DNA of 11,748 nt, taken from Cytophagaceae bacterium (lineage in GTDB: Bacteria > Bacteroidota > Bacteroidia > Cytophagales > Spirosomataceae). The notes beneath the pieces are model-generated. The model made no database searches. It was not told the DNA's origin and saw only the letters and a list, made by a program, of their open reading frames with translations. The stretch lies in contig JAIXRT010000085.1 of the NCBI GenBank assembly GCA_027485075.1, positions 1 through 11,748 on the forward strand, written 5' to 3'. Position numbers and translations under genes: made by a program. This document shows, in pieces, positions 1 through 11,748 of this stretch (positions are counted from its first letter, which is position 1; each line of letters starts with the position of its first letter).

Positions 1-410
1 CCACCTATACATGCATCAAACTTAAATTCCTCAATCGTATCTAACAGCGTTACCGTTTGCAAGACATTGCGCGAGGCGTATTTGCCAGATTCTTCTTTGG
101 CTTTCCCTTGGTCGATCGAATCCTGCACGTAACGCACAATTAATTCAGCTCCTGTTTCTTTGGCTAACCAATCCCGAAATTCGATCGTTTCTGGAAAGTT
201 GTGGCCTGTGTCAATGTGTACCAGTGGGAATGGAATTTTACCTGGAAAGAATGCCTTTTGGGCTAGGCGAACGAGGGTAATGGAATCTTTCCCGCCAGAA
301 AAAAGCAAAGCAGGGCGCTCAAATTGTGCGGCAACCTCGCGCATAATGTAGATGGACTCATCTTCAAGCTGACGTGGGAAATGGCCGATTTTATCTTGGT
401 ACGTATTCAT
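1..410 (-). CDS. cysD: Sulfate adenylyltransferase subunit 2 (CysD), N-terminal part, cut by left window edge
   Basis: CysD is the small catalytic subunit of ATP sulfurylase. With the GTPase CysN it makes adenylylsulfate (APS) from sulfate and ATP in the cytoplasm, the first step of assimilatory sulfate reduction. I translated it by hand from the ATG at 410-408; 136 complete codons are visible of a family length near 300. The PP-loop ATP-binding motif SGGKDS lies at residues 38-43, followed by the family-typical stretch around QKAFFPGKIPFPL (about 51-63) and DTGHNFPET at 67-75. The start is nine bases after the cysH stop, so the two genes almost certainly share a transcript. No Shine-Dalgarno sequence precedes the start. 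cysN would be expected beyond the left edge; that is inference. Confidence 0.93.
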   Translation of the reverse strand, partial: MNTYQDKIGHFPRQLEDESIYIMREVAAQFERPALLFSGGKDSITLVRLAQKAFFPGKIPFPLVHIDTGHNFPETIEFRDWLAKETGAELIVRYVQDSIDQGKAKEESGKYASRNVLQTVTLLDTIEEFKFDACIG

Positions 411-419
411 AAACAACTA

Positions 420-1112
420 TTAGGCGTGTAAACCACATTCTTTTTGTGAATTTTCCCACCACCAGCGACCTGCGCGGGGATGCTCACCTTCACTAATCGC
501 ACGTGTGCATGGTGCACATCCGATCGATACAAACCCTTTTTTATGTAGCGGGTTTTGGGGTATTTTATGTTCAGTTAAGTATTTTTCAAGCGTTTCAAAA
601 GACCAATCAATCAGTGGATTGATTTTATATAGGTTCTTCTGAGCATCCCACTCAATCATGGGCATCTCGGCCCGATTCTCTGATTGTTCTGCGCGCAATC
701 CCGTAATCCACACATGTGCACCTTGAAGGGCTCGGTTTAAGGGTTCTATTTTGCGGATGAAACAACATTCCTTACGGTTTTCAACCGATGTGTAGAACGA
801 GTTAAACCCTTTTTTAGCTACGAGTTCTTCCACAGCAGCTGTTTGCGGGAAAAAGGTGGTCAGGTTGAATCCTAATTTTTTGACCGTTAGGTCGATGAGT
901 TCATAGGACTCTTGAAATTGCCGACCGGTGTCTAATGTAAAAATTTGAATGGCTAATTTTTGCGAAGCGATTGCGTAGGTAATCGCTTGGTCTTCTTGTC
1001 CAAATGAGGTGGAAAATACCAATTTTTGACCTTGAAAAAGAAGAGCGATTTGGGCGATTCTTTCGTCAAGAGATAAAGGTAGAAGTGATTTTTCGAAATT
1101 TTCCGGGATCAT
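420..1112 (-). CDS. cysH: Assimilatory adenylylsulfate (APS) reductase, 4Fe-4S type, CysH family
   Basis: This 230-residue enzyme belongs to the CysH family and reduces activated sulfate to sulfite using thioredoxin-type electrons. A PP-loop-like segment STSFGQEDQ lies at 34-42, and DTGRQF at 61-66. Cys116-Cys117 together with Cys199 and Cys202 (CAPC) form the cysteine set that binds a [4Fe-4S] cluster. That cluster separates APS reductases from the cluster-free PAPS reductases of enteric bacteria. The redox-active cysteine is Cys226 in the terminal motif ECGLHA. Substrate type is inferred from these cysteines; the gene name follows the family. It is the first gene of a cysH-cysD operon. Its stop TAA is followed in frame by TAG, and cysD begins nine bases downstream. 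A TATCTTTG element lies 15 bases before the ATG, suggesting a very short leader. Confidence 0.94.
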   Translation of the reverse strand: MIPENFEKSLLPLSLDERIAQIALLFQGQKLVFSTSFGQEDQAITYAIASQKLAIQIFTLDTGRQFQESYELIDLTVKKLGFNLTTFFPQTAAVEELVAKKGFNSFYTSVENRKECCFIRKIEPLNRALQGAHVWITGLRAEQSENRAEMPMIEWDAQKNLYKINPLIDWSFETLEKYLTEHKIPQNPLHKKGFVSIGCAPCTRAISEGEHPRAGRWWWENSQKECGLHA

Positions 1113-1205: not shown

Positions 1206-1916
1206 ATGAGTTTTACTACCATGCGCACAGGGAATGAAATATTGTTGGATGAAGTGTCTGGAGAAGATGCAGATCTATTTTTGGATTTGCGCAATCTGAA
1301 GCATTTGGTTCGCCATGGAGAGGGGCAGCGGTTGGAGTTTAAGATGAAAGTAAAGTTTCCAGAAAAGATTATCAAAGAGTTGGTTGCTTTTGCGAATTCA
1401 GACGGCGGACATTTATTTGTGGGAGTTTCGGATGAAGGACACATTGAAGGTTCTAAGTTTGTTGAGGAAGATCAGTTCTTGTTAGAAAAGGCCATAAATA
1501 CCTATTGTTTTCCTGCATTTACCTATAACGTATACCGGATTCCTTTGGAGAATGGACGTTCCGTACTTGTTTATCACGTCTTTGAGAGTGTGGATAAACC
1601 GCATTTTGTACAGTTGGAATCGGACCCTAACCCGGTTTGTTATGTGCGGGTCAAAGACCGGACGGTGAAAGCAAGTAAAGAAATGAAGCAAATTTTGAGG
1701 CGTGAGAATGAGCCGGGATTAACATTTGCTTATGGAGATTCAGAGAAATGGTTAATGGAATATTTGCGCGAAAATGAGGTGATTACATTAGCTGAATTTA
1801 CCTTAAAATCAGGTTTACCTAGTTGGCTTGCCTCGCGTAAATTAGTTTTACTTGTACTTGGGCGTGTCTTACGGATTGAGCCGGGAGAACAACATGATAT
1901 GTATTATTTACGATGA
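1206..1916 (+). CDS. AlbA_2 / Schlafen-type domain protein with C-terminal winged-helix-like region
   Basis: This 236-residue protein has the hallmarks of the AlbA_2 (Schlafen AlbA_2) family. It carries GEGQRLEFK at 38-46, then KELVAFANSDGGHLFVGVSD at 57-76 and IEG at 80-82, and a basic CYVRVKDRTVKAS stretch at 145-157. The E39/E44/K46 spacing resembles the first part of the carboxylate motif of Schlafen nucleases, and D76 could be a third acidic residue; that comparison is from memory. Residues about 178-236 look like a small helical or winged-helix domain. Family members are variously called DNA-binding regulators, accessory ATPases or RNA nucleases, so the activity is unknown. A start at 1221 (Met6) is possible, and no ribosome-binding site decides between them. 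The stop codon overlaps the next start (ATGA), implying translational coupling with the copper/haem lipoprotein. Confidence 0.82.
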   Translation: MSFTTMRTGNEILLDEVSGEDADLFLDLRNLKHLVRHGEGQRLEFKMKVKFPEKIIKELVAFANSDGGHLFVGVSDEGHIEGSKFVEEDQFLLEKAINTYCFPAFTYNVYRIPLENGRSVLVYHVFESVDKPHFVQLESDPNPVCYVRVKDRTVKASKEMKQILRRENEPGLTFAYGDSEKWLMEYLRENEVITLAEFTLKSGLPSWLASRKLVLLVLGRVLRIEPGEQHDMYYLR

Positions 1917-3277
1917 AAAAAGGGTGGTTGTTCGTTTCTATTTTAGCGTTTGCCTGTTCTAAGGAGGCTACGGATCCGGGTGTGACGCCAGCACCTGAAT
2001 CCAAGGTAATTGCTTCGTTCGATGCATTGCAAGATAAATTTTTAACGCCAAGTTGTGCGACTTCTGGATGCCATTTTTCAGAGAAAGATGCCAGCTTCGC
2101 TCAGCATAAGCTTATTTTGGTAAAAGGGAAAGCGTATGCAAATCTCGTAGGTGTGCCATCTGTCAATGCAGCAGCCTTGGCTCGGTCTATTCCGCGAGTT
2201 AAGAAGTTTGCTTCGAACGAAAGTTTGTTTTTTCATAAGTTAAATTGGGATTTAGCACATCATGGATTAGTTAATTATGGTGCACCCATGCCTTTAGGCG
2301 GAAAGCCAATCAGTAAGGGTCAACTCTCATTTGTTCAAAAATGGATCGATGCAGGTGCGCCATTAGCTGGCGAGGTGGCGGATCCAACTTTGTTAGATGA
2401 TCAAACGCCAAGTTTTGTTGAGGATGCGAATTTTATACCCCTGCCATCACCAGCCGAAGAAGGCAAAGCGGGTGTTCAGTTGAAGGTTGAGCGCTTTGTT
2501 GTCCCTCCAAATTTTGAGCGTGAACTATTTGTGCGCAGGCCCTTGAATAACGCGGCTCCTGTGTATGTGTCCCGCATTAAGTTAAAGTCACGGTCAAATA
2601 GCCACCACATGGTTATTTATGATTTCAGAAATAAATCGGTGCTACCTAAAGAAGACGAGATTCGCGATTTAAGAAATTTAGACAACTCTCTAAATATTTT
2701 AACATTTCTGCAAATGTCGAATCATATTTTTTTAGGCGGTGGTACGGATCCCAATTCAGATTATACATTCCCAGCAGGAATGGCCCTTCAATTACCCGCG
2801 AACGCTTCAGTTGATTTGAATCCACATTACTTTAATCGAACGAAGGAGCCGCTTTATGGTGAAAATTACGTGAACCTATATACGGTGCCTGCGGATCAAG
2901 TTAAAAAAGTAGTTCAGATGATTGATTTTGGTGTTACTAATTTTACGCTACCTGCTAAACAGACGACTACGATAACGCGTGATTTTAAATTTGATAAAGA
3001 TGTCGTGGTTGTTTCCCTTACATCTCATTTTCACGCAAAGGGTAAGTTGTTTCAAATTCGTATTAAAGGTGGGGCGAGAAATGGTGAAATAATTTACGAA
3101 AACACCGATTGGGAGCATCCTAAAGTAATTAACTACGAAGTCCCTATCAATTTGCAAGCCGGTGAAGGCTTAACTTCGGTGGTAACATATGTGAATGATA
3201 CATCGAAAGACATTAGCTTTGGTCTCACCTCAGAAGACGAAATGAATATCATTTTCGGGTATTACTATACGCGCTAA
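1913..3277 (+). CDS. Putative lipoprotein: CX4CH cytochrome-c-like domain fused to copper type II (PHM/DBH-like) monooxygenase domain
   Basis: The protein has 454 residues. A hydrophobic N-terminus ends in AFAC-SKE, suggesting lipidation at Cys15, though the lipobox is atypical (Ala at -3, Phe at -2). A cytochrome-like region spans about 35-152: Cys48, Cys53 and His54 form CX4CH instead of the usual CXXCH, Met126 in APMPLGG is a candidate axial ligand, and the region ends with WIDAGAP, typical of small anchored cytochromes. Residues about 190-454 resemble copper type II ascorbate-dependent monooxygenases. Candidate ligands are His231-His232 (SNSHHMVIYD), His305 (NPHYFN), His372 and His374 (SHFHAKG) and Met444 (EDEMNI), the three-plus-three set of peptidylglycine hydroxylating monooxygenase. 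No other cysteines exist, so the disulfides of animal enzymes are absent. Likely envelope-located. The substrate is unknown, and haem-to-copper electron transfer is inference. Confidence 0.8.
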   Translation: MKKGWLFVSILAFACSKEATDPGVTPAPESKVIASFDALQDKFLTPSCATSGCHFSEKDASFAQHKLILVKGKAYANLVGVPSVNAAALARSIPRVKKFASNESLFFHKLNWDLAHHGLVNYGAPMPLGGKPISKGQLSFVQKWIDAGAPLAGEVADPTLLDDQTPSFVEDANFIPLPSPAEEGKAGVQLKVERFVVPPNFERELFVRRPLNNAAPVYVSRIKLKSRSNSHHMVIYDFRNKSVLPKEDEIRDLRNLDNSLNILTFLQMSNHIFLGGGTDPNSDYTFPAGMALQLPANASVDLNPHYFNRTKEPLYGENYVNLYTVPADQVKKVVQMIDFGVTNFTLPAKQTTTITRDFKFDKDVVVVSLTSHFHAKGKLFQIRIKGGARNGEIIYENTDWEHPKVINYEVPINLQAGEGLTSVVTYVNDTSKDISFGLTSEDEMNIIFGYYYTR

Positions 3278-6905: not shown

Positions 6906-6938
6906 TTTGCCAAATTTGTTTCTCGCATAATAACCTTG
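6906..6938 (+). promoter_or_regulatory. Putative promoter of the GH2 gene (-33 TTTG, near-consensus -7 TAACCTTG)
   Basis: TAACCTTG at 6931-6938 differs from TAnnTTTG by one base. TTTG at 6906-6909 lies 21 bases upstream, and another at 6915-6918 is too close. Transcription would begin around 6944, leaving a leader of about ten bases before the ATG at 6954. The element also contains the TTG that would otherwise be read as an upstream start codon. Confidence 0.4.
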
Positions 6939-6953
6939 CGTAAATCTAAACCT

Positions 6954-9647
6954 ATGAAAAAACTATTGATACTCCTATTATTAGGGGCTAACTCAGTTGC
7001 ATTTGCTCAGAAAACATCTCAACCCCTTCCGGAACATCCAAGGCCTGATTTAATGCGGTCACAGTGGTTGAATTTAAATGGTTCGTGGGATTTTACTTTT
7101 GATTCTACCTTTGTTATTCCTTCCAAATTTGCGCATAAAATTCAGGTTCCTTTCCCATGGGGATCGAAGCTTTCTGGTGTGAAGGATGATGCCGATGTGG
7201 CGTGGTATCATCGATCATTTCAAGTGCCTGCCGTGTGGGGTTCTAAGCGTGTGTTTTTGAACATTGGTGCATCCGATTGGCATACATCTGTGTATGTGAA
7301 TGGTCGGTTTGTTGGGGAACATAAAGGTGGATATACGCCGTTTGATTTTGACGTCACTTCATTTTTGAAAGTAGGGATTCAATCGGTCGATATTCGCGTG
7401 GATGATAAGCGGCGGATGTTTACCTTATATGGGAAGCAGGGGTATGGGAATGCGCGGGGGCTTTGGCAGACGGTCTTTTTGGATGCTCGGGGATCGGATT
7501 ACATTGACCATTATGCGGTTTATCCGGATATTGACAAGGGCTCTGTTCGGATCAAAACCTACTTAGCTACTGCTGCTTCAAAAGATGCTGTTTTACAGGT
7601 TAGACTAGCTAATGGGCAGTCGGCTAGCATGCCTGTGAAGAAAGGAGCATCTGTTGCGGAGCTTACATTGAAATTAGCTAAACCGCGTTTATGGTCATTG
7701 GAAGATCCATATTTGTATGATTTGTCGTTGAGTTTAGGGAATGATCAGGTGAAAGGGTATTTCGGTTTTCGGAAGATTTCGGTGACGCCGTTGCCAGGTT
7801 CTAAGATTCCTTACATCGCATTGAATAATAAGCCTGTTTATCTACAGTTGGCCCTTGACCAAAGTTACCATGCTGATGGATTTTATACCTTTCCTTCTGA
7901 CGCCTTTATGAAAGATGAAATCATTCGCAGTAAGCGAATCGGGTTGAATGGGATTCGGACGCACATCAAAGTGGACATTCCACGCAAATTATATTGGGCT
8001 GATAAGTTGGGGTTATTGGTGATGTCGGACGTCCCAAATTCTTGGGGCGAGCCGGATGCCGATATGCGTCGAGAGACAGAATATACCTTACATGAGATGT
8101 TGAAGCGTGACTTTAATCATCCGGCGATTTTTTCTTGGATTACATTTAATGAGACATGGGGTTTGTTTACGAAGCAGGATAAGAAGTCTGTTTATACGCC
8201 TGAAACACAAAAGTGGGTGGCTTCGGTTTATCGTTTGGCAAAATCCTTAGATCCAACACGTCTTGTGGAGGACAATTCGATTTGTTGTGGTCGGGGGCAT
8301 ACGGAGACGGATATTCAGTCTTGGCATGCGTATCAGGCTGGTTATGAGTGGGATCAAGTGATGGCTGATCAATCTAAAAATGTATTTCCGGGGAGTCAAT
8401 GGAATTTTGAAAAGGGCTATGTGCAAGGGTCGCAGCCGATGATTAATTCGGAGTTTGGGAATGTGTGGGGATATCAGGGAAGTACGGGTGATGTGGATTA
8501 TACGTTTGATTATCATAAGGCGATGAATTCGTTTCGGAATCATCCGAAGATGGCTGGTTGGTTGTATACGGAACATCATGATGTGATTAATGAGTGGAAT
8601 GGCTATTATAAATTTGATCGGACGGAGAAGGAAACTGGGTTGGGTGCAATTGTGCCCGGGATGACATTGAAGGATTTGCATGGGCCGTTTTATGTATCGA
8701 CGGGTCAGGAAATTACCTGGGCTGGGAAGGCTGGCCAAACAATCAAGATTCCACTTCATCTGTCATCTATGACGGATTTGTCAGGTGGGCTACGTTTGAA
8801 AATTTCGTTTGCTGGTGTGACGGCATGGGGAGAAAAGCAAACGCATTGGACGAAGGAGGTACCTCTCAAGTTTGCTCCTTGGGATGTGAAGGCTTTGGAT
8901 TCGCTTTCCGTTGTTTTACCAAAAGATAAATCCGTGAATACCCTTTCATTTGTTTTAATGGATGTTGCGGGAAAAGTGTTACATCGGAATTTTGGCCATG
9001 TCATTGTTGAAGAAGGAAATTTAAAGCCTTCGAATCCCAAAATGGAATTTGTTTCTATTCCTGTTGAGCGTTATAGCGCTTCTTTGTGGCCGGAAAAGCA
9101 ATGGACCGGAGTTTTGGGCCAAAAGGTAAATGGGGCAGGTGCCGGTTATTTTGAATATGAATTACCGATTTCTGGAAGTGATATTGCCGAGGTTCGATTT
9201 ATGGTGGAGGCGTCTTCTAAACCAATTTTGGGAAAGGATCGACCAGATGGTGGTAAAATGGATGGGGATTATATGTTGGGGAAAGGGACTTTTGACCCTA
9301 GTGTTAATCCAAACGCCTACCCACAGACGGATATGTATCCTTCTTCTTCCTCGATGCGTGTTTTTGCTAATGGAATTTTGACGTTAGAGACGGTTTTAGC
9401 GGATGACCCAGCTGATCACCAGGGAGTTCTTTCGTGGCATTATCAGGCGCGGAATAAAAAATTGGATGAGGCGGGAACATATGGGTATTTGGTGCAGGGT
9501 GTTATTCCTCCAGCTGCCTGGCAGGCAGCTTTGAAAACGGGAAAATTAGTGCTTCGTTTTGAGTCTACCCGGGGAGGTTTGGCGCTGTATGGGGATCAAT
9601 CTGGGCGCTTTGTAACTGATCCAAGTATTTTGATTTTTCGCAAGTAA
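6954..9647 (+). CDS. Secreted glycoside hydrolase family 2 enzyme (beta-galactosidase/beta-glucuronidase fold)
   Basis: The protein has 897 residues from the ATG at 6954. A TTG 18 bases upstream is in frame but would put six residues, two lysines and a proline among them, before a standard signal peptide (MKKLLILLLLGANSVAFA, cleavage after about residue 19). The mature enzyme probably acts in the periplasm or outside the cell. Order of parts: N-terminal sugar-binding jelly roll about 35-185 (LNGSWDFTFD at 41-50), Ig-like domain about 186-280 with PRLWSLEDPYLY at 244-255, catalytic TIM barrel from about 285. Glu400 in FNETWG is the predicted acid/base and Glu500 in INSEFG the predicted nucleophile. 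About 300 further residues form a C-terminal extension without a family I can name. GH2 covers many beta-glycosidases, so the substrate is open. The GH28 neighbour makes a pectin-derived sugar plausible. Confidence 0.9.
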   Translation: MKKLLILLLLGANSVAFAQKTSQPLPEHPRPDLMRSQWLNLNGSWDFTFDSTFVIPSKFAHKIQVPFPWGSKLSGVKDDADVAWYHRSFQVPAVWGSKRVFLNIGASDWHTSVYVNGRFVGEHKGGYTPFDFDVTSFLKVGIQSVDIRVDDKRRMFTLYGKQGYGNARGLWQTVFLDARGSDYIDHYAVYPDIDKGSVRIKTYLATAASKDAVLQVRLANGQSASMPVKKGASVAELTLKLAKPRLWSLEDPYLYDLSLSLGNDQVKGYFGFRKISVTPLPGSKIPYIALNNKPVYLQLALDQSYHADGFYTFPSDAFMKDEIIRSKRIGLNGIRTHIKVDIPRKLYWADKLGLLVMSDVPNSWGEPDADMRRETEYTLHEMLKRDFNHPAIFSWITFNETWGLFTKQDKKSVYTPETQKWVASVYRLAKSLDPTRLVEDNSICCGRGHTETDIQSWHAYQAGYEWDQVMADQSKNVFPGSQWNFEKGYVQGSQPMINSEFGNVWGYQGSTGDVDYTFDYHKAMNSFRNHPKMAGWLYTEHHDVINEWNGYYKFDRTEKETGLGAIVPGMTLKDLHGPFYVSTGQEITWAGKAGQTIKIPLHLSSMTDLSGGLRLKISFAGVTAWGEKQTHWTKEVPLKFAPWDVKALDSLSVVLPKDKSVNTLSFVLMDVAGKVLHRNFGHVIVEEGNLKPSNPKMEFVSIPVERYSASLWPEKQWTGVLGQKVNGAGAGYFEYELPISGSDIAEVRFMVEASSKPILGKDRPDGGKMDGDYMLGKGTFDPSVNPNAYPQTDMYPSSSSMRVFANGILTLETVLADDPADHQGVLSWHYQARNKKLDEAGTYGYLVQGVIPPAAWQAALKTGKLVLRFESTRGGLALYGDQSGRFVTDPSILIFRK

Positions 9648-10245: not shown

Positions 10246-11748
10246 TTAGTTAATTTTCCAGTTTTTCACATGAAATAACTCCGATTTTTTCGCCCCAGTT
10301 TCCGTAAATTTTGCTTGTTTCAAGACAATATCCCTCGCCTCAATTACCCGGTATCCTTGCACACTTTCGATATCCAAATTACTTAGATTGATATGGTGAA
10401 TCGGCATTTCGGGTAAGCCGCGAATTAACAATCCAGTTTCGGCTCCTTTGGCAACTACATTTTCAACGAAAATATGTTTAAACTGTGGCGTTCCTTCATT
10501 GACAGGCAACAATTCAATTTTAGGAGTCTCCCCTCCATCACCAAAAGTTGCCACCGGATCTTTCCCTTGATAATACATATCAAATAGAATCGCCTCACCA
10601 GCTATATTTTTCATTGAAATGTCACGAATAAACACGTTTTCCACGACACCGCCCCGTCCACGTGCTGTTTTAAATCGTAATCCTACATCCGTTCCTAAAA
10701 ACTGACAGTTTCGTACATACAAGTCATGCACCCCTCCCGACATTTCACTTCCCACCACCACTCCACCATGACCATGGAATACAACACAATTCTCAATCAT
10801 GATATGTGCACTTGGCCGACCGCGTTTACGGCCTTCCGCATCTTTGCCAGATTTCAAACAAATTCCATCATCGCCCACATCGAAACGCGAATTACGAACA
10901 GAAACAAACTCACAAGATTCAATATCAATCCCATCGCCATTCTGCGCAAACCAAGGATTCTTTACCGTTATATTTTCAACCGTCAAATGCTTGCAAAGCA
11001 GTGGGTGAATATTCCAGGCTGGTGAATTTTGAAAAGTTACACCTTCCAATAATACTTGCTCGCATTCGCGCAAACTGATCATATTCGGCCGGACAAATTC
11101 TTTAATTTCCTCCGTATTTGCCTCCGTAAATCCTGCTGCAACCACACCTGGACGATCCATCGTAGATGCTTTTAACGCCCCTGCCGACGGGTACCAGGTT
11201 TCTTTTTTAGGATCCAATACTCCTCCTGAACGAACCAATTTATCCCATTCTCCCGCTGTCATTTTCCCTTTCTTAACCGGTCTCCATGCCTCACCCGCTC
11301 CATCTATCACCCCAAAACCCGTAATCGCAATGTTTCGTGCCCCCACAGCCGATATAGGCGATTGAGCCCGAATCGCATCTACACCCTCCCAATTTGTGCG
11401 CACCAACGGATAATCTTTAGGATTATCACTAAACTGCAAAACAGCACCTTGCGCCAAATGTAAATTCACATTCGACAAGATAGATATCGGTCCACTAATC
11501 CAGAATCCAGCAGGAATTAAGACAACCCCACCGCCTTGCTGGCTGGCAACTTGTATCGCCTGTTGGATCGCCCCTGTATTCAATACCCCTACCGCGCGCT
11601 TAGCTCCATATTGTACGATATTAAATGTATCTCTTTTAAATGCTGTCGTTGCCACGGCAGGTAATTCGAATTCATATTTTTCGCTGAAAGCCGATTTACG
11701 TAAGAAGCTTTTCAAATGCTCCGTTGAATTAGCTAAAGCATCTGCTAC
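10246..11748 (-). CDS. Glycoside hydrolase family 28 (polygalacturonase-like), 5' end beyond right window edge
   Basis: Five hundred residues are visible. The reading frame stays open to the window edge, so the true start and any signal peptide are outside; a TTG at 11715 is internal. GH28 enzymes hydrolyse galacturonan or rhamnogalacturonan by inversion on a right-handed beta-helix. All four family motifs are present: NGD (canonical NTD), its Asp at 10933-10935; GDD, its Asp pair at 10867-10872; GHG, its His at 10771-10773; and RFK (canonical RIK), its Arg at 10675-10677. An N-terminal segment FNIVQYGAKR with NTGAIQQAI is the usual beta-helix entry, and GGGVVLIPAG follows. Thr is replaced by Gly in the first motif, which I regard as a tolerated family variation. 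It is followed by a 35-bp palindrome and the DUF1569 gene. Confidence 0.93.
   Translation of the reverse strand, partial: VADALANSTEHLKSFLRKSAFSEKYEFELPAVATTAFKRDTFNIVQYGAKRAVGVLNTGAIQQAIQVASQQGGGVVLIPAGFWISGPISILSNVNLHLAQGAVLQFSDNPKDYPLVRTNWEGVDAIRAQSPISAVGARNIAITGFGVIDGAGEAWRPVKKGKMTAGEWDKLVRSGGVLDPKKETWYPSAGALKASTMDRPGVVAAGFTEANTEEIKEFVRPNMISLRECEQVLLEGVTFQNSPAWNIHPLLCKHLTVENITVKNPWFAQNGDGIDIESCEFVSVRNSRFDVGDDGICLKSGKDAEGRKRGRPSAHIMIENCVVFHGHGGVVVGSEMSGGVHDLYVRNCQFLGTDVGLRFKTARGRGGVVENVFIRDISMKNIAGEAILFDMYYQGKDPVATFGDGGETPKIELLPVNEGTPQFKHIFVENVVAKGAETGLLIRGLPEMPIHHINLSNLDIESVQGYRVIEARDIVLKQAKFTETGAKKSELFHVKNWKIN

What the first reader, a model, noticed from the sequence alone, without database searches (positions are those of the whole stretch)
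1913..3277. Cytochrome-c-like domain fused to a PHM/DBH-type copper monooxygenase in a putative lipoprotein
The sequence shows CX4CH (Cys48, Cys53, His54) with a candidate Met126 ligand, followed by His231-His232, His305, His372, His374 and Met444. These stand in the order and local context of the two copper sites of peptidylglycine alpha-hydroxylating monooxygenase (HH, H; HxH, M). Animal enzymes take electrons from ascorbate and depend on disulfides; this protein has no spare cysteines and carries its own putative haem. It could therefore be a bacterial, envelope-located hydroxylase fed by an electron-transfer chain rather than by ascorbate. Substrate and product are unknown.
Basis: partly seen in the sequence, partly recalled or inferred. 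Interest (0 to 1): 0.72.

Follow-up and report, generated by a model that had tools for sequence, protein, structure and literature searches.

The report
Bacterial haem-wired PHM-type copper hydroxylase
This gene encodes a probable envelope lipoprotein in which a small haem-carrying, cytochrome-like domain is fused to a copper-enzyme fold best known from animal hormone- and neurotransmitter-making enzymes, suggesting that bacteria may power this chemistry with a built-in electron wire instead of vitamin C.

The parts
1913..3277 (+). Whole gene: putative lipoprotein with N-terminal CX4CH cytochrome-c-like domain and C-terminal PHM/DBH-type copper monooxygenase domain, 454 aa
1913..1957 (+). Signal peptide and lipidation Cys15. 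Cys15 is kept in 75 of 75 clade members, but the window's own box AFAC is a loose lipobox
   Evidence: lipobox rule recalled
2015..2398 (+). Helical cytochrome-c-like domain, residues 35-162
2054..2074 (+). CX4CH haem attachment motif, C48-ATSG-C53-H54
2288..2290 (+). Met126, candidate axial haem ligand in MPLGG
   Evidence: 75 of 75 clade members; a Met in 360 of 360 rows as aligned; the sister clade's MPP Met was not aligned to it
2432..3274 (+). PHM/DBH-type copper monooxygenase module, residues 174-454
2603..2608 (+). H231-H232, two predicted CuH ligands
2825..2827 (+). H305, third predicted CuH ligand
3026..3034 (+). H372-x-H374, predicted CuM ligands
3242..3244 (+). M444 in DEM, predicted CuM ligand
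1206..1916 (+). Schlafen AlbA_2-domain gene whose end overlaps the start of the gene by 4 bases. Perhaps translationally coupled; a functional link is not shown

Best explanation
The protein is an envelope lipoprotein that works as a haem-wired PHM/DBH-type copper hydroxylase. Shown by sequence and predicted structure: a C-terminal PHM fold with all six residues of the CuH (H231, H232, H305) and CuM (H372, H374, M444) sites, and an N-terminal helical domain with a conserved CXnCH motif and MP motif. Inferred: the Ccm system attaches haem c at C48, C53 and H54, with H54 and M126 as axial ligands. Also inferred: electrons pass from an envelope donor such as another cytochrome to the haem and then one at a time to the coppers. 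CuM would then activate O2 and hydroxylate a C-H bond of an extracellular or periplasmic substrate. The substrate is unknown and is probably not a glycine-extended peptide.
Confidence: 0.7

Rival explanations
1. A PHM/DBH-fold monooxygenase whose N-terminal domain is a cytochrome but serves another role (docking, redox sensing, protection), with the coppers reduced by small molecules such as ascorbate-like reductants or quinols.
For: A PHM-only lipoprotein relative exists with no cytochrome domain and no cytochrome gene in the 8 kb inspected around it. Animal DBH, MOXD1 and MOXD2 carry an N-terminal DOMON domain before the copper domains (PMC4125168, one passage).
Against: In the phylum sample 27 of 28 assessable PF03712 loci keep a CXnCH domain (28 of the 37 non-window matches), and the triad is invariant across two clades.
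Confidence: 0.15
2. A non-catalytic haem-copper protein: a copper or oxygen sensor, copper store or electron sink that kept the PHM fold and ligands.
For: No substrate gene context; the gene was not found in 8 of 36 other genomes of the genus, including near-complete ones.
Against: The full CuH and CuM sets, including the Met ligand, and the adjoining acidic residue E443 are invariant over 90 sequences, which is more than copper storage should need (inference).
Confidence: 0.1
3. A true peptidylglycine alpha-hydroxylating monooxygenase making amidated peptides.
For: PHM entries give the highest Z among solved structures.
Against: The positions of the PHM carboxylate clamp (R240, N316 and Y318, numbers recalled) are T370, I446 and F448 here; over the 75 clade members they are T 68 and F 7, I 72, and F 73. 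No lyase gene was seen among the window's genes; the rest of the genome was not searched for one.
Confidence: 0.03
4. CX4CH is not a haem site but binds copper or zinc or forms a disulfide.
For: No cytochrome family model scores for the window's own domain.
Against: Homologous position of CXXCH in relatives that match cytochrome c models, tolerance of 2, 3 or 4 spacer residues, an invariant His and a downstream MP motif.
Confidence: 0.07

Closest known systems
Peptidylglycine alpha-hydroxylating monooxygenase (PHM; PDB 3mib, rat 1phm)
   Different: 13% identity; no cysteines left for the disulfides of PHM (recalled); recalled substrate-clamp residues differ; fused CX4CH domain; bacterial lipoprotein; no lyase domain
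Dopamine beta-hydroxylase / MOXD (PDB 4zel)
   Same: Same copper module; Foldseek E 2.5e-13; the sister clade matches by sequence with ligands aligned
   Different: Animal proteins have a DOMON domain before the copper module; here a c-type-cytochrome-like domain takes that place; no spare cysteines here
Sister clade of cytochrome-PHM proteins, mostly with T9SS sorting tails, in Bacteroidota and relatives (annotated in databases, no study found here)
   Same: Same cytochrome-PHM order, homologous over both domains
   Different: Canonical CXXCH and MPP motifs and mostly T9SS tails (11 of 14 by Pfam) instead of CX4CH, MPLGG and a lipid anchor; the cytochrome domains alone align at only 88.5% probability
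Hydrazine synthase (5c2v) and FoxE (5mab), recalled to be c-type haem proteins
   Different: Not significant on their own (FoxE: E 1.5 and 0.19 by profile, Foldseek E 5.5)

Membership tests
PHM/DBH copper type II monooxygenase fold superfamily | Beta fold of the PHM core | tested here: met
PHM/DBH copper type II monooxygenase fold superfamily | CuH ligands HH and H, CuM ligands HxH and M in order | tested here: met
   Invariant in 90 of 90 full-length proteins; one substitution among 360 further proteins. Spatial clustering was not measured
PHM/DBH copper type II monooxygenase fold superfamily | Pfam Cu2_monoox_C and Cu2_monooxygen over cut-off | tested here: inconclusive
   C domain 22.1 bits against 23 for the protein, 26.3; 56 of 59 family members match at E<=1; N domain model not found in the window's protein
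Peptidylglycine alpha-hydroxylating monooxygenase proper | R240, N316, Y318 substrate clamp (recalled) | tested here: not met
   T370, I446, F448 at the positions counted from H372 and M444
Peptidylglycine alpha-hydroxylating monooxygenase proper | Disulfide-stabilised (recalled) | tested here: not met
   Three cysteines only: C15, C48 and C53
Ascorbate-dependent monooxygenase | Ascorbate as reductant, two coppers bound, hydroxylation activity | not testable with these tools
   Needs purified protein
c-type cytochrome | CXnCH motif, conserved | tested here: met
   CX4CH in 68 of 75, CXXCH in 7 of 75 clade members; 15 of 15 sister members CXXCH; CX3CH in some proteins of the set
c-type cytochrome | Cytochrome c fold or family model | tested here: inconclusive
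   Sister clade matches Cytochrome_CBB3 in 11 of 14 at E<=1, under cut-off in the member shown; the window's domain matches no model; weak structural matches
c-type cytochrome | Covalent haem | not testable with these tools
   CcmE and Cytochrom_C_asm genes present in the genome, which is permissive only
Bacterial lipoprotein | Signal peptide with lipobox Cys | tested here: inconclusive
   Cys15 invariant in 75 of 75, but the window's AFAC box is loose; no predictor was run

The most novel reading that the evidence does not exclude
PHM/DBH chemistry in bacteria is carried out by a very large, undescribed family of extracellular and outer-membrane enzymes that carry their own c-type haem. The haem would feed electrons directly into the two-copper site, so ascorbate is a later animal solution. 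The window's clade has in addition widened the haem motif to CX4CH.
Probability: 0.5. Interest if true: 0.78.

Novelty: new variant of a known kind. Interest (0 to 1): 0.62.

Why it matters
How electrons reach and cross between the two distant coppers of PHM and DBH is a long-debated question (recalled), studied mainly in animal enzymes fed by ascorbate. A natural fusion with a spectroscopically visible haem would make each electron step observable. It would also give a bacterial branch to an enzyme family known mainly from neuropeptide and catecholamine biosynthesis, and a cysteine-poor scaffold suited to expression in bacteria.

Tried and rejected
Gene neighbourhood as a guide to substrate: an AlbA_2 Schlafen-type gene sits directly upstream in 34 of the 69 loci that show an upstream ORF, and a Kup-type transporter is the next ORF downstream in 27 of 74. 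Elsewhere neighbours vary, with small conserved groups in some lineages, so no substrate was inferred.

ResB (System II) search in the window's genome found nothing; CcmE and two Cytochrom_C_asm genes were found instead. That the two are CcmC and CcmF is my reading of their frame lengths (267 and 852 aa). The genome is 87% complete.

Direct sequence searches of the PDB with the window protein or its clade found no PHM; the link needed the sister clade (to DBH) or structure.

Single origin of CX4CH: one change in the whole-protein tree of 62 rows (support 83/94), two in the tree of the PHM part alone (one change in 14% of 200 bootstrap trees), so one or two origins. The first tree kept the motif columns; the second warns of long branches meeting.

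Chance resemblance between the two clades' domains: column-shuffled controls gave at most score 17.7 against 38.1 observed for the N domain, and 18.4 against 135.5 for the PHM domain, 30 shuffles each.

Simple pattern counts on the 360 proteins missed ligands in some rows because of fixed spacings; the aligned count replaces them.

Rows dropped before counts: of the 73 loci, eight cut or partial ones were not extracted (L028, L047, L068, L084, L086, L087, L088, L093), and L056 and L092 fell out as short (first Met taken late). Of the 29 loci other than the window, L112, L115 and L123 fell out too. L056, L092 and L112 do hold the CXnCH motif, L123 is cut by its contig end, and L115 lacks the domain. 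L001-L021, found, were not counted, being the window or largely the same genomes.

Whether the six ligands cluster in two sites and how far the haem lies from the coppers could not be measured, because no coordinates were released.

Full report
Observation. The open frame at 1913-3277 on the + strand encodes 454 residues. The only other cysteine is C15 at the end of a signal-like segment. The window lies in a 2.3 Mb, 286-contig, 87% complete genome with one PF03712 match. Its genus seems to be that of named Aquirufa strains: same-genus genome G034 has a contig of the same length, 340137 bases, as the A. ecclesiirivi contig of L041.

Family. The protein search returned 1437 relatives at E<=0.001 among 8000 scored; of the 120 listed, those with a name are called hypothetical protein. 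The genome scan gave 73 loci, mostly from Cytophagales, Chitinophagaceae and other Bacteroidota, and six from Candidatus Neomarinimicrobiota. PF03712 occurs in 35 of 395 genomes of the phylum sample, 32 over the cut-off, and in none of 14 control genomes. In the window's genus 28 of 36 other genomes hold a match to the protein; eight do not, near-complete ones among them, so it is accessory.

Conservation. In an alignment of 90 full-length proteins (75 of the window's clade including itself, 15 of a sister clade), the invariant residues are C48, C53, H54, W144, P180, H231, H232, P287, H305, H372, H374, N428, G437, E443 and M444. Nine of the fifteen are the predicted haem and copper residues. 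In 360 further proteins, the best 120 of each of three searches, H231 and H232 are present in 360 of 360. H305 and H372 are present in 357 with 3 gaps each. H374 is present in 356 with 3 gaps and one Lys. M444 is present in 352 with 8 gaps. C48, C53 and H54 are present in 356 with 4 gaps each. A Met aligns with M126 in 360; in the alignment the sister clade's MPP Met did not align with it. The lists are best hits, not random samples.

Evolution. CX4CH rows form one side of a branch in the tree of 62 proteins (support 83/94). In a tree of the PHM part alone two changes are needed. With the sister clade as outgroup, CXXCH is the likely older state (inference). One Bacteroidota lipoprotein (L115, seen in L127) has the PHM part with no cytochrome domain and no cytochrome gene in the 8 kb inspected. 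It is the only such case among 28 assessable loci; one search gave 37 matches outside the window, of which 29 were fetched and one of these is cut by its contig end.

Mechanism. Known PHM chemistry needs two electrons per turnover, held on CuH and CuM, with O2 activation at CuM (recalled). I propose that the fused haem takes electrons from an envelope donor and passes them to the coppers. In L080 and L082 a separate lipoprotein with a CXXCH motif is encoded 4 and 28 bases upstream, and L083 has a gene of the same cluster 39 bases upstream. Pfam was run on the L080 protein only: Cytochrome_CBB3 E 1.2e-4, 22.8 bits, under the cut-off of 27. That fits such a chain without proving it. The substrate is unknown. 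Counted from the ligands, the PHM carboxylate-binding positions (R240, N316, Y318, recalled) are T370, I446 and F448; over the 75 clade members they are T 68 and F 7, I 72, and F 73. A peptidylglycine substrate is therefore unlikely.

Literature. Ten searches of the held library were made. Two returned nothing and one (27) listed only 15 of 34,975. Among the titles and abstract starts listed I saw no paper on bacterial PHM-type proteins or cytochrome-PHM fusions. The six papers naming PF03712, PF01082 or Cu2_monoox concern animals or, in one case, a receptor-prediction method, judged from the listing; one passage of one of them was read. Passages of PMC6529398 do not mention bacteria or prokaryotes. 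JGI names for a few sister-clade proteins read copper type II ascorbate-dependent monooxygenase or cytochrome c. The fusion is thus visible in databases but I found no description of it in this library, which lacks most subscription journals.

Verdict. The finding is real and the interpretation largely correct. I class it as a new variant of a known kind: membership of the PHM/DBH fold is met, PHM proper is not, and the haem fusion is the novelty.

Noticed in passing
window 1206-1916 +: AlbA_2 Schlafen-type gene overlaps the start of the PHM-like gene by 4 bases; a gene of this cluster is directly upstream in 34 of 69 loci with an upstream ORF
   Followed up: partly
L127 7717-8640 + (same gene as L115): PHM-only lipoprotein of 307 aa without the cytochrome domain in another Bacteroidota family, near genes that look by eye like ribosomal protein and NusG genes
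   Followed up: partly
L080 7131-7952 +, L082 3483-4313 +, and the same-cluster gene in L083: Lipoprotein with a CXXCH motif encoded 4 to 39 bases upstream of the PHM-like gene, a candidate electron donor; SprB repeat and sub-cut-off Cytochrome_CBB3 match tested on L080 only, motif read on L080 and L082
   Followed up: partly
L077, L078, L079, L081, L086 downstream of the match: Conserved pair of genes after the PHM-like gene; by eye on L078 a signal-bearing class V aminotransferase-like protein and a beta-lactamase-like serine hydrolase
   Followed up: no
L089-L094: Candidatus Neomarinimicrobiota relatives are longer (about 580 aa where complete); many proteins of the list carry a dockerin type I match
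   Followed up: no
window 6936-9647 + and 10246-11748 -: Glycoside hydrolase family 2 and family 28 proteins, perhaps pointing to plant-polysaccharide use
   Followed up: no
window 3-1112 -: Two adjacent PAPS-reductase-domain genes, by eye cysD- and cysH-like
   Followed up: no
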